This document shows positions 30,811 through 39,187 of a stretch of 64,000 bases of DNA, in pieces (position 1 is the stretch's first letter; each line of letters starts with the position of its first letter). The notes beneath the pieces are model-generated. The model was not told where the DNA came from and did not search any database. It was given only the letters and a program-made list of their open reading frames with translations. Both the position numbers and the translations under genes were made by a program. The DNA comes from Oscillospiraceae bacterium (GTDB lineage Bacteria > Bacillota > Clostridia > Oscillospirales > Oscillospiraceae), in assembly GCA_015068325.1 (NCBI GenBank), contig SVKQ01000021.1, forward strand, positions 62,001 through 126,000. The letters are read 5' to 3'.

Positions 30811-30839
30811 TTGACAAAAAGGCGTTTTTGTGCTACATT
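30811..30839 (+). promoter_or_regulatory. Sigma-A promoter
   Basis: TTGACA-17 nt-TACATT upstream of riboswitch. Confidence 0.75.
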
Positions 30840-30845
30840 GAATTG

Positions 30846-30968
30846 CGGTATCAGGGAGTAGCTGGCGCAAATGCGCAACATATTCCGTCAGTACGGGAAT
30901 TATCCCCGGAATTTGTTCGAAGCAGCAAGACTTTTACCACAGCTTCGGTTGTGGTAAAAGTCTTTTTT
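30846..30968 (+). ncRNA. yybP-ykoY family (Mn2+) riboswitch with expression-platform terminator
   Basis: AGGGAGUAGC ... AACAUAUUCCGUCAGUACGG ... AGCAAGACUUUUACC consensus blocks, then hairpin GACTTTTACCACAgcttcggTTGTGGTAAAAGTC + T7. Confidence 0.75.
30929..30968 (+). terminator. Intrinsic terminator inside leader
   Basis: GACTTTTACCACA-gcttcgg-TTGTGGTAAAAGTCTTTTTTT. Confidence 0.92.
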
Positions 30969-31007
30969 TATCGCCTATTTTGCAATATACGATATTGGGA
31001 GGCACCT

Positions 31008-32765
31008 ATGAGCATTTTTTCTATATTCACGTTACTAGGCGGATTGGCATTCTTTATCTACGGCATGAATCAAATGTCACATAGCTTAGAAATCATTGCC
31101 GGTGAAAAAATGGAATCCATTATTAATAAGCTTACAAGTAATCGTTTCCTTGGATTGCTTCTTGGGTGTGCTATCACAATAGCAATTCAAAGTTCATCCG
31201 CTGTAACGGTCATGTTGGTCGGCCTTGTCAATTCAGGGCTCATGGATCTTTCTAACACAGTCGGTATTATTATGGGTTCCAATATCGGGACGACAGTTAC
31301 AGCTTGGATTATGAGCTTGATCGGCGTTTCAAGTAAAAACATCTTCGTACAGATGTTGAAGCCCGAATCGTTTGCTCCTTTGCTTGCATTTATCGGCATT
31401 GTATTGCTCATGCTTGCAAAGCTTCCCAAAAGAAAAGAAATTGGTAATGCCTTTGTTGGTTTTGCGGTTTTGATGTTTGGCATGATGCTGATGAGCAATT
31501 CGGTGGCACCGCTTGCTGACAGTCCTGCGTTTGCAAAACTATTGACCGCCTTTCAGAACCCGCTGTTAGGCGTATTTACAGGATTGGTCGTTACAGCTAT
31601 TATACAGAGTTCTGCTGCCAGCATTGGCATGCTTCAGGCCCTGTCCATGACAGGAGGCATTACATACGGGATTGCGATACCGATCATTATGGGCCAGAAC
31701 ATCGGGACCTGTGCAACGGCGATTCTTTCCAGTATCGGAGTCAACCGAAACGCAAAAAGGGTAGCCGCCATTCATTTGTCATTCAATTTGATCGGCACCA
31801 CTGTTTTCATGATCATCTACTGTGCGCTCCATTCATTTCTGGATGCCTCATTTCTCAATCTGAAGGTAGCTCCCGTAGAAATTGCCGTTTGCCATAGCAT
31901 TTTCAATGTATCAACTACGATCCTGCTTCTGCCGTTTTCAAAAATGCTTGTCAGAATTGCCGAAGGTTTCATAAAGGAAGATGCTGTGCTGCAAATCGCT
32001 TTCCTTGACGAAAGGCTTTTTAATACCCCTTCTATTGCAGTGGGGAAATGCGATACTTTTGCGAATGAGATGGCAGAATCAGCACAGTCCGCTGTTCACC
32101 TGGCCATTGAAAACTACTTTGATTACGAAGAAAATAACGGGCACATGGTGAGAGACCTCGAAAGCCGTATTGATACATACGAAGATCGGTTGGGAACTTA
32201 TCTGATAAAGCTCTCCGGGAGCAAGAATACCCAAAGGGACAAGCGCAGGATTGCCAAGATGCTGCATTCCATAGGAGATTGGGAGCGCATCAGCGATTAT
32301 GCGCGGGACTTAACAAAAAGCGCTTTGGAAATCAAAGAGAAAAAGCTGGAAATCTCTGAGCAGGCAAAAGCGGAACTAAAAACGCTGTCGAAAGCAGTTG
32401 CGGAGATCGTATCATTAACGGCAGAGGCCTTTGTTCATTCCGATGCAGAGCTTGCCACAAGGGTCGAGCCGCTGGAGCAAGTGATTGATCTGTTGGTAAC
32501 AAAATGCAGGGAAAACCATATTCATAGGCTTCAAGACGGCGTATGCACGCTCGAACGTGGCTTTGTTCTTGCTGATACACTCAACAGTTATGAAAGAATA
32601 TCCGGCCACTGCTCCAATATCGCAATCGCTGTACTGGAAGAAGGCAAAGAGAAATTTGGTCCTCATGGATATATGCAGCAGCTTAAATCCGGTAACGATC
32701 CGGTTTTTCAGAAACTGTTCCAAGAATATCAGACGTGTTATTTATCGGACTTTCAAGAGAAATGA
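31008..32765 (+). CDS. Na/Pi cotransporter family protein (with PhoU-like C-terminal domain)
   Basis: LGGLAFFIYGMNQMSHSLE, QSSSAVTVMLVGLVNSG, GSNIGTTVTAWI, repeated QSSAAS / GQNIGTCATA; helical C-terminus. Confidence 0.95.
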   Translation: MSIFSIFTLLGGLAFFIYGMNQMSHSLEIIAGEKMESIINKLTSNRFLGLLLGCAITIAIQSSSAVTVMLVGLVNSGLMDLSNTVGIIMGSNIGTTVTAWIMSLIGVSSKNIFVQMLKPESFAPLLAFIGIVLLMLAKLPKRKEIGNAFVGFAVLMFGMMLMSNSVAPLADSPAFAKLLTAFQNPLLGVFTGLVVTAIIQSSAASIGMLQALSMTGGITYGIAIPIIMGQNIGTCATAILSSIGVNRNAKRVAAIHLSFNLIGTTVFMIIYCALHSFLDASFLNLKVAPVEIAVCHSIFNVSTTILLLPFSKMLVRIAEGFIKEDAVLQIAFLDERLFNTPSIAVGKCDTFANEMAESAQSAVHLAIENYFDYEENNGHMVRDLESRIDTYEDRLGTYLIKLSGSKNTQRDKRRIAKMLHSIGDWERISDYARDLTKSALEIKEKKLEISEQAKAELKTLSKAVAEIVSLTAEAFVHSDAELATRVEPLEQVIDLLVTKCRENHIHRLQDGVCTLERGFVLADTLNSYERISGHCSNIAIAVLEEGKEKFGPHGYMQQLKSGNDPVFQKLFQEYQTCYLSDFQEK

Positions 32766-32776
32766 TGAGGGAAAAA

Positions 32777-34045
32777 ATGAAGATTTTTGCTTTAATCCTG
32801 TTTGCTTTGATGTATGTCCTTATGATTGCCAAGCCAAAATTCAGGCCGTTTTACGCCCTGTCAGTGGCAGTGATCTTTCTGATCTCAGGCATTTTACCGC
32901 CGGATAATCTGTTGTCAACGATTAACTGGAATGTTTTGTTGATGATAGCGGGAACAATGATCATCGTTTATTACTTCATCGATTCCCACATGCCGAATCT
33001 TTTGGCAGATATCCTGCTGGGAAAATCCAAGAATGTCATGTGGGTAACCATACTGATGTCTCTCTTTGCCGGCGTAATCTCGGCATTCATCGACAATGTT
33101 GCCACGGTATTGATGGTTGCTCCCGTAGGAATGGCAATTTGCAAAAAGCTGAAGATGAGTCCTGTGGGGATGATTCTTTCCATTGCTGTATCTTCTAATC
33201 TTCAGGGTGCTGCCACACTTGTCGGGGATACTACATCAATTATGCTAGGTGACTATGCGAACATGAATTTCATGAATTTCTTCTGGATGAACGGGCGGCC
33301 TGGAATCTTTTTTGCCGTAGAGCTCGGCGCGCTCGCTACCGTCCCTGTCATGTTGTTCTTGTTCCGTAATGATAAGGCTCCGGTCTCTTCAACAGAGAGA
33401 ACCGCCGTCAGCAACTATGTGCCTACAGTAATGCTGCTCCTTATGGTTGCTGCTCTGATTACCGCTTCATTCATCCCGGATGCGCCGCAGATGATAAATG
33501 GCATTATTTGCTGCTCGCTGGCAATTGCCACTATCTTGATTGATTTCATTCACGAGAAAAAGGCACATAATGCCATCACAGCCGTGAAGAATCTGGACTT
33601 TGAAACACTGGGGCTTCTTACGGGTTTGTTTATCGTAATCGGCGGACTGACAAATGTTGGTATCATTGATGACTTTGCGAGTCTGATCGTTAAATTCGGC
33701 GGCAATAATATCTTCCTGTTATATACAATTGTAGTCTGGGGATCAGTGCTTATTTCTGCCTTTGTTGATAATATCCCTTATGTGGCGACTATGCTGCCTG
33801 TTCTGACGGCTGTAACGGCTGCGCTGGGAATGGAGCCGTATCTTCTGTACTTCGGGTTGTTGTCCGGTGCGACCTTAGGCGGCAACATCACCCCTATTGG
33901 TGCATCTGCTAATATTGCCGCTGTGGGAATGCTCAGAAAAGAAGGGTATCAGGTGTCGTTTACAGAGTTTATGCGAATAGGACTGCCTTACACCTTCGTT
34001 GCGGTGATGACCGGGTATCTATACTTCTGGTTAATTTGGGCATAA
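32777..34045 (+). CDS. SLC13/ArsB-NhaD superfamily permease
   Basis: SAFIDNVATVLMVAPVG, GAATLVGDTTSIMLGDYA, SAFVDNIPYVATMLPVL, GGNITPIGASANIAAVG (two inverted-repeat halves). Confidence 0.92.
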   Translation: MKIFALILFALMYVLMIAKPKFRPFYALSVAVIFLISGILPPDNLLSTINWNVLLMIAGTMIIVYYFIDSHMPNLLADILLGKSKNVMWVTILMSLFAGVISAFIDNVATVLMVAPVGMAICKKLKMSPVGMILSIAVSSNLQGAATLVGDTTSIMLGDYANMNFMNFFWMNGRPGIFFAVELGALATVPVMLFLFRNDKAPVSSTERTAVSNYVPTVMLLLMVAALITASFIPDAPQMINGIICCSLAIATILIDFIHEKKAHNAITAVKNLDFETLGLLTGLFIVIGGLTNVGIIDDFASLIVKFGGNNIFLLYTIVVWGSVLISAFVDNIPYVATMLPVLTAVTAALGMEPYLLYFGLLSGATLGGNITPIGASANIAAVGMLRKEGYQVSFTEFMRIGLPYTFVAVMTGYLYFWLIWA

Positions 34046-34113
34046 TCGTTGGGCAATTATCTTGCTCCATGCGTCATGGTTGAACTCTATGATCAATTGA
34101 CGGATTGCATGGT

Positions 34114-34150
34114 AAGCCCTGTAGGTCTACACCTGCAGGGCTTGTTCTTG
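34114..34150 (+). terminator. Terminator after SLC13-type gene
   Basis: AAGCCCTGTAGGT-ctac-ACCTGCAGGGCTTGTTCTTGTT. Confidence 0.8.
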
Positions 34151-36660: not shown

Positions 36661-38547
36661 TTATATCGTCCGTTTTACCGTCAGAAGGCGCATGGAGTTG
36701 AGGATGCACAGCACCGCCACACCCACGTCGGCAAACACCGCCGTCCACATATTGGCCACACCGAAAGCGCTGAGCACCAGCACGATCAGCTTCACCGCCA
36801 ATGCAAACACAATGTTCTGGCGGGCGATGGCCACTGTGCGGCGGGCGATCCCCATCACAGAGGCGATACGGCGCAGATCGTCGTCCATGATGACCACATC
36901 CGCTGCCTCGATAGCGGCATCGGACCCCAGAGAGCCCATGGCGATGCCCACATCGGAACGGGCCAGCACCGGCGCATCGTTGATGCCGTCACCCACAAAG
37001 GCCAGCTTGCCCTCCTTCTGCTCCGCCAGCAGCGCCTCCACCTGCGCCACCTTGCCGGCGGGCAGCAGCTCGGCACAGATCCGGTCCACGCCCAGCTCCC
37101 GGCCTACCGCATCACCTGCGGCGCGGCGGTCTCCGGTTAACATAATGATTTGATCCACTCCCTGGGTGCGGAGGGCCGATACGGCCTCCCGGGCCTCGGG
37201 CTTCACCTGATCCCGGATCAGGATAGCGCCAAGGTAGCGGCCGTCCTCTGCCACGCGGCAGACAGTAGCCGCGTTATCCGATACGGCAGGGCAGACTATG
37301 CCCTCCGACGCCAACAGCGCATCGCTGCCCACCAGTATCCGGCGGCCAGATACCGAAGCGATCAATCCGCGGCCGGACACATTCTCCACACTCGTCACCG
37401 CAGACAGGTCTGTTTCCCGCTCCCCCAGCGCCTCCCGGATGGATTGGGCGATGGGGTGCGTGGACAGGCCCTCCGCCAGTGCGGCAATATGCAGCACAGT
37501 GCCGCGCTTTACGCCCGGAGCACAGAGCACCTCTGCGACGCGAAAATCTCCCATGGTCAGCGTGCCGGTCTTGTCGGAGACCAGTGTACGGACCTGCGCC
37601 ATCAGTTCCAGATAGTTGGAGCCCTTTACCAGCACACCGCCGCGGCTGGCCGCGCCGATGCCGCCAAAAAAGGCCAATGGCACGGAGATCACCAGCGCAC
37701 AGGGACAGGAGATGACCAGAAAGGCGCAGGCCCGGTAGATCCAGGTGGCCCAACCGCCCGCGAACAGCGGTGGAAAGATTGCCAGCAGCACGGCTGTGCA
37801 CACCACGATGGGAGTATAGTAGCGGGCAAAACGGGTGATGAAGCTCTCGGTGCGTGACTTCTTCTCTGACGCCGTCTCCACCAACTCCAGGATGCGGGTC
37901 ACCGCGGAATCCTCGAAGGCCTTTTCCGCACGGACACGCAGCAGCCCGTCGCCGTTGATGCAGCCGGAGATGACCGCGTCGCCGGAACGGGCGGCACGGG
38001 GCACCGGCTCGCCGGTCAGGGCGGCGGTGTTGATGAGACTCTCGCCGGAGAGCACCGTGCCGTCCACCGGGATGCGCTCGCCAGGGCGGATCACCAGTAC
38101 GTCGCCCACGGCGACCTCATCCGGGTCCACCGTCTCCACGGTACCGCCCGGGCGCTCCACGTTGGCAGATTCCGGCACGATGTCCATCAGCTCGGTGATG
38201 GAGCGGCGGGAACGGCCCACGGCATAGCCCTGGAACCACTCACCCACCTGATAGAACAGCATCACCGCCGCGGCCTCGGCGTTTTCCCCGATGGCAAAGG
38301 CTCCTACAGTGGCCACCGTCATCAAAAACGATTCGTCGAACATCTGCCGGTTTTTGATACCCAACAGCGCCTTGCGCAGCACCGGCGCACCGCACAGCAG
38401 ATACGGCACCAGATACAGCGCCAGGCTGAGCCAGCGGTTTTCAAATATCGCCGGCGCCAGATGGAGCCGGTCCGCCAACAGCAGACAAAGGAACAGCGCC
38501 GCCGTCAGCAGGATCTTGTTCAGTTCTCTCTTCTGCTTGGCACCCAT
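36661..38547 (-). CDS. Heavy-metal translocating P-type ATPase (Zn/Cd/Pb class)
   Basis: VISCPCALVISVPLAFFGG, SDKTGTLTMG, GDGINDAPVLARSDVGIAMG; no N-terminal HMA domain. Confidence 0.96.
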   Translation of the reverse strand: MGAKQKRELNKILLTAALFLCLLLADRLHLAPAIFENRWLSLALYLVPYLLCGAPVLRKALLGIKNRQMFDESFLMTVATVGAFAIGENAEAAAVMLFYQVGEWFQGYAVGRSRRSITELMDIVPESANVERPGGTVETVDPDEVAVGDVLVIRPGERIPVDGTVLSGESLINTAALTGEPVPRAARSGDAVISGCINGDGLLRVRAEKAFEDSAVTRILELVETASEKKSRTESFITRFARYYTPIVVCTAVLLAIFPPLFAGGWATWIYRACAFLVISCPCALVISVPLAFFGGIGAASRGGVLVKGSNYLELMAQVRTLVSDKTGTLTMGDFRVAEVLCAPGVKRGTVLHIAALAEGLSTHPIAQSIREALGERETDLSAVTSVENVSGRGLIASVSGRRILVGSDALLASEGIVCPAVSDNAATVCRVAEDGRYLGAILIRDQVKPEAREAVSALRTQGVDQIIMLTGDRRAAGDAVGRELGVDRICAELLPAGKVAQVEALLAEQKEGKLAFVGDGINDAPVLARSDVGIAMGSLGSDAAIEAADVVIMDDDLRRIASVMGIARRTVAIARQNIVFALAVKLIVLVLSAFGVANMWTAVFADVGVAVLCILNSMRLLTVKRTI

Positions 38548-38805: not shown

Positions 38806-39138
38806 TTATTGTTCCTCGATGTGTTCCTTGCCCATGGCGATGATGGTCTTTACATGGTCATCCGCCAGGAAATAGATCATTTGCTTGCCCAAGCGGCGTG
38901 AACCGATGAGCCGCGCCGTTTTCAGGAGCTTCAGCTGGTGGGAGACTGCCGATTGGTTCATCTCCAGATCGATGCAGATTTCCGTCACGTTCTTCTCTCC
39001 GCTGAACAGGTCGTACAGGATCTTGATCCTGGTGGAGTCGCCGAAGACCTTGAACAGCTCCGCCAGATCGCTCAGTTCGTTCTCCGGTACGTCAGCAATC
39101 AGATGATCCGCCGCACCGGCCGCACATTTTTTCTCCAT
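38806..39138 (-). CDS. ArsR/SmtB family metalloregulator
   Basis: LFKVFGDSTRIKILYDLFSGEKNVTEICIDLEMNQSAVSHQLKLLKTARLI. Confidence 0.95.
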   Translation of the reverse strand: MEKKCAAGAADHLIADVPENELSDLAELFKVFGDSTRIKILYDLFSGEKNVTEICIDLEMNQSAVSHQLKLLKTARLIGSRRLGKQMIYFLADDHVKTIIAMGKEHIEEQ

Positions 39139-39187
39139 GATGCAGCCCTCCCCTCTTTGCCATTTATATAATGAACTATTGCTCATA

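What the first reader, a model, noticed from the sequence alone, without database searches (positions are those of the whole stretch)
30811..34045. Likely yybP-ykoY (Mn2+) riboswitch controlling a Na/Pi cotransporter + SLC13-type permease pair
Seen: promoter TTGACA-17-TACATT; leader with AGGGAGUAGC, AACAUAUUCCGUCAGUACGG and AGCAAGACUUUUACC; then a terminator (30929-30968) whose 5' arm overlaps the block that should be the 3' strand of aptamer P1; gene at 31008. Established: yybP-ykoY riboswitches sense Mn2+ and usually precede Mn exporters (MntP, P-type ATPases, TerC). Inference: here the output is an NptA/PhoU-type transporter plus a SLC13/ArsB-like permease, so one of them may be an unrecognised Mn2+ (or Mn-phosphate) homeostasis exporter.
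Basis: partly seen in the sequence, partly recalled or inferred. Interest (0 to 1): 0.82.

Follow-up and report, generated by a model that had tools for sequence, protein, structure and literature searches.

The report
Manganese riboswitch controlling unusual transporter pair
A gut Clostridia genome carries a genuine manganese-sensing RNA switch in front of a phosphate-type transporter and an SLC13-type permease, and the same switch has been placed in front of that permease again and again in related bacteria, which points to the permease as an unrecognised part of manganese detoxification.

Summary
Positions 30846-30970 are a yybP-ykoY (Mn2+) riboswitch with a terminator that overlaps its P1 switch helix, ahead of an Npt-PhoU gene (31008-32765) and an SLC13/ArsB-like permease gene (32777-34045). 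A covariance model built from this leader and four relatives found similar leaders in 147 of 298 genomes of the order, preceding OadB-like, P-type ATPase, CaCA and MntP genes, with strong covariation. A second model, built from those leaders, found the class across the phylum in front of TerC, GDT1, MntP and P-type ATPase genes, the classic set. New here: of the 80 nearest permease homologues in GTDB, 30 carry the leader, 28 directly upstream, with at least 13-19 gains or losses on the permease tree. Npt is an insert in the window's lineage; a second leader-Npt-permease operon, next to a Mn/Ca-type ATPase, arose separately. The permease is therefore the likely primary effector, probably Mn2+ (or Mn-complex) efflux. 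Transport and metal binding are untested.

The parts
30811..30839 (+). sigma-70-type promoter, TTGACA-17-TACATT with extended TG
   Evidence: 10 of 12 consensus matches
30846..30938 (+). yybP-ykoY (Mn2+) aptamer, complete
   Evidence: model R1 84.2 bits (by construction one of its 5 seeds); R2 74.6 bits; sub-threshold end-to-end match to RF02617 SSRC10, 33.5 bits
30847..30854 (+). 5' strand of switch helix P1 (GGUA..AG)
   Evidence: pairs with 30931-30938; helix 1 covaries across relatives, 94% of cells paired
30854..30862 (+). L1 5' side, GGGAGUAGC
   Evidence: GGAGUA core found by motif scan in nearly every related leader
30865..30876 (+). helix P2 (GCGC-AAAU-GCGC)
   Evidence: covaries, 92% of cells paired
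30877..30917 (+). helix P3 with L3 (UCAGUACG, 30888-30895); A30890 corresponds to the Mn-sensing adenosine A41 of L. lactis
   Evidence: site assignment from PMC9190785 and PMC6754395
30924..30930 (+). L1 3' side, AGCAAGA
   Evidence: conserved in related leaders
30931..30938 (+). 3' strand of P1, shared with the 5' arm of the terminator
   Evidence: mutually exclusive folds: the MFE of 30846-30938 holds P1, the MFE of 30846-30970 does not
30927..30969 (+). intrinsic terminator (17 bp, UUCG loop, U-run)
31008..32765 (+). Npt-PhoU protein, 585 aa (Na_Pi_cotrans PF02690 + PhoU PF01895)
32777..34045 (+). SLC13/ArsB-type permease, 422 aa (PF03600), Asp-Asn at both hairpin-tip motifs
34111..34146 (+). 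terminator-like hairpin after the two-gene operon
   Evidence: consensus scan only

Best explanation
A transcriptional ON riboswitch of the yybP-ykoY class. When Mn2+ is scarce, the 3' strand of P1 is captured by the terminator hairpin and transcription stops before 30970. When cytosolic Mn2+ rises, it docks L1 against L3, stabilises P1, blocks the terminator and lets the Npt and permease genes be transcribed. The SLC13-type permease is the primary effector and most likely lowers cytosolic Mn2+ by secondary-active export of Mn2+ or a Mn complex. Npt-PhoU is a later-added partner that handles the accompanying phosphate or Na+ load. Shown here by comparison: class membership, anatomy, mutually exclusive folds, recurrent gene link. 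Inferred: Mn2+ as ligand (from the class and the conserved metal site; about 0.93), permease as Mn exporter (about 0.5), role of Npt (about 0.25).
For: Similar leaders in 147 of 298 genomes of the order. The first downstream genes of about 100 leaders are OadB 34, P-type ATPase 24, CaCA 20, MntP 13-15, Npt 4, permease 2, SPFH 2. In a 61-genome phylum sample model R2 finds the class before TerC, GDT1, MntP, CaCA and P-type ATPases. 86.4% of cells paired and a covariation score of 0.579 against 0.224 shuffled and at most 0.123 when slid. L3 UCAGUACG matches the crystallised L. lactis type UCA41AUUC (PMC6754395, PMC9190785). SSRC10 lies just upstream of a putative calcium transporter gene (PMC3675131), and a GBS Ca/Mg-ATPase gene has a yybP-ykoY leader (PMC4448216). 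Permease link: 5 of 22 other homologues in an order sample and 30 of 80 nearest GTDB homologues, 28 of them direct, with 13-19 changes on the tree. Neighbours: leader-Npt-permease-leader-P-type ATPase (L258), permease-leader-P-type ATPase (L279), divergent mntP beside leader-permease (L204).
Against: No RF00080 hit, though the positive controls fail too; model R2 also misses the E. coli leaders. The window's P1 is imperfect (an internal mismatch). 48 of the 79 permeases on the tree lack the leader, so they work under other control as well. L3 type correlates with the downstream gene (MntP mostly the X. oryzae type; permease, OadB and CaCA mostly the L. lactis type), so a shift in metal preference is possible. 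The genome also has an mntP gene without a leader. No transport data exist for this permease.
Confidence: 0.6

Rival explanations
1. The leader senses Mn2+, but the permease and Npt do not move Mn. They correct a secondary effect of Mn overload (phosphate, citrate, Na+ or pH balance).
For: Npt-PhoU is a phosphate-transporter architecture; the permease fold is close to VcINDY and ArsB, which carry anions; SPFH and LemA genes, which are not transporters, also follow the leader.
Against: The permease alone is the direct output in 28 loci, in the place that MntP, P-type ATPase, TerC or GDT1 take elsewhere. Its two SNT-type motifs carry invariant Asp-Asn instead, which fits a cation better than a dianion.
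Confidence: 0.35
2. The L. lactis-type L3 subgroup in Clostridia has drifted to another divalent ion (for example Ca2+), and OadB, CaCA, permease and Npt form a regulon for that ion.
For: L3 type is tied to gene type: 81:6 for OadB, CaCA, permease and Npt against 1:12 for MntP (not corrected for kinship). Breaker and colleagues expect yybP variants with changed specificity (PMC7266159). CaCA and PMR1-like ATPases are Ca2+ families.
Against: The L. lactis aptamer with this L3 type is Mn2+-specific, and the sensing adenosine is kept (PMC6754395, PMC9190785). TerC genes and many P-type ATPases use the same L3 type. The G059/L258 Npt-permease operon uses the other L3 type and its neighbouring ATPase this one.
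Confidence: 0.1
3. The leader is only a small RNA or attenuator like SSRC10, with no metal sensing.
For: The best Rfam match is RF02617, typed as an sRNA; SSRC10 was seen as a discrete Northern band (PMC3675131).
Against: SSRC10 itself lies directly upstream of a transporter gene and ends in a terminator, as a terminated leader would. The leader precedes Mn-related genes across the phylum.
Confidence: 0.03

Closest known systems
L. lactis yoaB yybP-ykoY Mn2+ riboswitch (PDB 4Y1I)
   Same: P1/P2/P3 architecture, GGAGUAGC and AGCRAGA of L1, L3 of the UCA41-type, ON switch by P1.1 antitermination
   Different: one G fewer before GGAGUAGC; output is Npt plus SLC13-type permease, not a P-type ATPase
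Rfam RF02617 SSRC10 (Streptococcus)
   Same: aligns end to end at 33.5 bits, including L3 CGUCAAUACGG and the overlapping terminator
   Different: below its gathering score of 56; filed in Rfam as an sRNA; in S. pyogenes upstream of a putative calcium transporter gene
ArsB (10tp) and VcINDY (DASS/IT superfamily)
   Same: same fold: TM 0.83 and 0.81 to the permease model
   Different: 18-19% identity; permease has Asp-Asn at both hairpin tips, where VcINDY has SNT (or SNV) and ArsB has AND/MNN
NptA/YjbB-type Npt-PhoU proteins
   Same: Na_Pi_cotrans plus C-terminal PhoU domain
   Different: no phosphate control seen here; placed under a Mn riboswitch and next to the permease

Membership tests
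yybP-ykoY (Mn2+) riboswitch | score over RF00080 gathering cut-off | tested here: inconclusive
   no hit, but the model also misses the validated E. coli mntP and alx leaders, so a miss carries no weight
yybP-ykoY (Mn2+) riboswitch | L1 blocks GGAGUAG and AGCRAGA | tested here: met
   30854-30862 and 30924-30930; shared across related leaders
yybP-ykoY (Mn2+) riboswitch | L3 with the invariant Mn-sensing adenosine (UCA41 or ACA48) | tested here: met
   UCAGUACG, A30890; site named in PMC9190785 and PMC6754395; correspondence read by eye
yybP-ykoY (Mn2+) riboswitch | P1, P2, P3 helices supported by covariation | tested here: met
   (alignment fitted to the model; slid and shuffled controls far lower)
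yybP-ykoY (Mn2+) riboswitch | class precedes MntP, TerC, GDT1, P-type ATPase genes | tested here: met
yybP-ykoY (Mn2+) riboswitch | P1 3' strand shared with the expression platform | tested here: met
   119 of 137 leaders
yybP-ykoY (Mn2+) riboswitch | selective Mn2+ binding and Mn2+-dependent read-through | not testable with these tools
   needs in-line probing and transcription assays
SSRC10 (RF02617) | score over gathering (56 bits) | tested here: not met
   33.5 bits; not filed as SSRC10
DASS (SLC13) anion symporters | PF03600 domain and DASS fold | tested here: met
DASS (SLC13) anion symporters | TIGR00785 cut-off and SNT motifs | tested here: not met
   60.8 of 198.6 bits; Asp-Asn replaces the Ser-Asn motifs
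ArsB arsenite exporters | NCBIfam ArsB cut-offs | tested here: not met
   46.8 of 760 and 53.7 of 457 bits
Na/Pi symporters (NF037997) | curated cut-off | tested here: met
   170.5 over 50 bits
Known Mn2+ exporters (MntP, YoaB-type ATPase, GDT1, TerC) | domain match of either window protein | tested here: not met
   neither protein matches these Pfam families

The most novel reading that the evidence does not exclude
The Asp-Asn SLC13/ArsB-like permease is an unrecognised family of Mn2+ (or Mn-complex) exporters in gut Clostridia, recruited repeatedly under Mn riboswitches and sometimes paired with an Npt-PhoU protein that co-exports phosphate. Stand-alone OadB-like and CaCA proteins under the same switch would be further Mn exporters.
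Probability: 0.4. Interest if true: 0.75.

Novelty: new member of a known kind. Interest (0 to 1): 0.57.

Why it matters
The switch is known, but its outputs in this order are mostly transporter families not established as Mn transporters (SLC13-type, Npt, OadB-like, CaCA). Because the Rfam Mn model misses these leaders, this regulon is probably absent from surveys that rely on it. A recurrent riboswitch-gene link gives a direct, testable substrate prediction for annotated-by-fold permeases, and the strong tie between L3 type and gene type offers a natural test of whether the aptamer's metal preference varies.

Tried and rejected
RF00080 as arbiter: rejected after the E. coli positive controls failed. 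A second own-genome hit (C1:202356, 23.1 bits) lies inside a peptidase gene and is a false positive. Several low-scoring SSRC10 hits in relatives (L005, L006, L010, L012, L013) are ordinary terminators or a tRNA region. Npt as the main effector: rejected, because 29 close Npt homologues from other genomes carry no leader and the nearest permease relatives have the leader without Npt. Permease-neighbour clustering gave no further strong functional clue beyond Npt and the P-type ATPase. Literature searches for the Npt, SLC13 or OadB link to Mn riboswitches found none in the open library; the two founding papers of 2015 are not held, so prior mention there cannot be excluded. The Npt structure model was too uncertain (pTM 0.51) to use.

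Full report
What is there. The leader at 30846-30970 starts 6 nt after a good sigma-70 promoter (30811-30839) and ends in a 17-bp terminator (30927-30964) with a U-run. An Npt-PhoU gene (31008-32765) and, 11 nt after it, a permease gene (32777-34045) follow. Pfam gives Na_Pi_cotrans plus PhoU for the first and CitMHS, with weak ArsB, for the second.

Rfam. No family reaches gathering in the window. The best sub-threshold match is RF02617 SSRC10, 33.5 bits, end to end. RF00080 does not see the leader even at E 10. This is not a refutation: the same model fails on the loci of the order sample and of GTDB that carry such leaders, many of them in front of mntP, P-type ATPase or other transporter genes, and on the validated E. 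coli mntP and alx leaders. SSRC10 in S. pyogenes lies directly upstream of a putative calcium transporter gene and ends in a terminator (PMC3675131); the GBS ATPase gene gbs0560 has a yybP-ykoY leader (PMC4448216); a Streptococcus Mn-sensing riboswitch on a Mn/Ca ATPase is cited in PMC11477304. SSRC10 is therefore probably a terminated Mn-riboswitch leader (inference).

Class membership. Model R1 was built from this leader and four relatives found with SSRC10 (P2 of one and P4 of another were trimmed by hand for the alignment). It found leaders in 147 of 298 genomes of the order. About 100 were fetched with their downstream genes. First genes: OadB-like 34, P-type ATPase 24, CaCA 20, MntP 13-15, Npt 4, permease 2, SPFH 2; representatives were checked with Pfam and NCBIfam. 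Helices P1, P2 and P3 covary: 86.4% of cells paired, covariation score 0.579 against 0.224 for shuffles and at most 0.123 for slid versions (the alignment is fitted to the model, which inflates this). In a 61-genome phylum sample model R2 finds the class in front of TerC, GDT1, MntP, P-type ATPase, CaCA and LemA genes. TerC (the YkoY family), MntP, GDT1 and YoaB-type ATPases are the established outputs of yybP-ykoY. R2 does not detect the E. coli leaders, so it is a clade-limited tool.

Ligand site. PMC9190785 and PMC6754395 give the Mn site: phosphates of L1 and L3 residues and N7 of A41 (L. lactis UCA41AUUC) or A48 (X. oryzae ACA48UACU). The window has UCAGUACG, the L. lactis type, with the adenosine at 30890. 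Both types are crystallised Mn2+ aptamers.

Switch. With P1's 3' strand just made (30846-30938) the minimum-energy fold contains P1 (-27.5 kcal/mol); with the terminator made (30846-30970) P1 is lost (-48.5). In 119 of 137 leaders an arm complementary to the P1 3' strand follows within 75 nt, 105 with a T-run, against 11 for shuffled downstream sequence. This is the antitermination layout described for L. lactis (PMC11087558). The window's P1 is imperfect.

Which gene is the target. Of 22 other permease homologues in a 149-genome sample of the order, 4 have the leader directly upstream and 1 via Npt. With roughly 0.6 leaders per genome and about 2000 genes, the chance for a random gene is about 3 in 10,000 (my estimate). 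Of the 80 nearest homologues in GTDB, 30 have the leader, 28 directly and 2 via Npt. A motif scan of 45 of the leaderless homologues found no missed motif. On the permease tree (window plus 78 homologues) the leader needs 19 changes, at least 13 forced by supported branches (quick tree). The nearest relatives of the window's permease are L202 (leader-permease) and L203 (leader-Npt-permease); the next ones are mostly leader-permease, so Npt was most simply inserted between leader and permease in the ancestor of window and L203. L258 (same genome as G059) shows a separate leader-Npt-permease operon followed by its own leader and a PMR1-like P-type ATPase; L279 has permease-leader-ATPase; L204 has mntP divergently beside leader-permease. 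Npt and permease also neighbour each other without a leader (L260, L265, L184, L196). Npt alone rarely carries the leader: 29 close homologues from other genomes carry none.

What the permease may do. Its predicted structure (pLDDT 87) matches ArsB (TM 0.83) and VcINDY (0.81). At the first hairpin tip, where VcINDY has SNT and ArsB AND, it has D106-N107; at the second it has D331-N332 where ArsB has NN (the second position against VcINDY was not aligned directly). Both Asp-Asn pairs are invariant in 39 homologues. Two carboxylates at the ion and substrate sites fit a cation better than a dianion (inference). Leader-bearing and leaderless homologues share these residues, so the residues do not prove Mn transport. 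The own genome also has an mntP gene without a leader and no other credible leader.

Open point. L3 type and gene are linked: OadB, CaCA, permease and Npt 81:6 for the L. lactis type, MntP 1:12 (regex classes, not corrected for kinship). P-type ATPases use both (8:17). PMC7266159 expects yybP variants with altered specificity. I hold Mn2+ for the window at about 0.93, because the L. lactis type itself is Mn-specific, the adenosine is kept, TerC genes use this type too, and the L258 operon reaches the same Npt-permease pair through the other type.

Verdict. Real, correctly read, and the class is known. The new part is the recurrent placing of an Asp-Asn SLC13-type permease, at times with Npt, under Mn control, and an RNA regulon that the Rfam Mn model misses.

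Noticed in passing
L044, L045, L046 and about 31 further loci: The commonest output of this leader class in the order is a stand-alone OadB-like protein (PF03977, Na+ decarboxylase beta, about 374 aa), 34 of about 100 leaders; no link between OadB and Mn was found in the literature searched.
   Followed up: partly
L047:8123-9058, L090, L101, L109 and others: CaCA-type Na+/Ca2+ antiporter genes (PF01699, TIGR00367) are the first gene after 20 leaders.
   Followed up: partly
Rfam RF02617 (SSRC10): The Streptococcus 'sRNA 10' family is probably the terminated leader of a Mn riboswitch in front of an ATPase gene, not an independent sRNA.
   Followed up: partly
Rfam RF00080, release 15: The 177-position Manganese model misses the validated E. 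coli mntP and alx leaders and all tested Clostridia leaders at gathering.
   Followed up: yes
L047:5194-6379: One genome has two leaders about 1 kb apart: leader-SPFH/HflC-like, then leader-Npt-CaCA.
   Followed up: no
L292, L293: LemA-family genes follow the leader in two genomes of one genus in the phylum sample.
   Followed up: no
L080:101-191: A close but damaged copy of the window's leader (GGAGCAG, GCGGGAC) lies in front of a secreted protein gene; probably a decaying relic of the operon.
   Followed up: no
window 36661-38547 (-) and 38806-39186 (-): A P-type ATPase gene and a small ArsR-like regulator gene lie downstream on the other strand, a probable separate metal-efflux unit.
   Followed up: no
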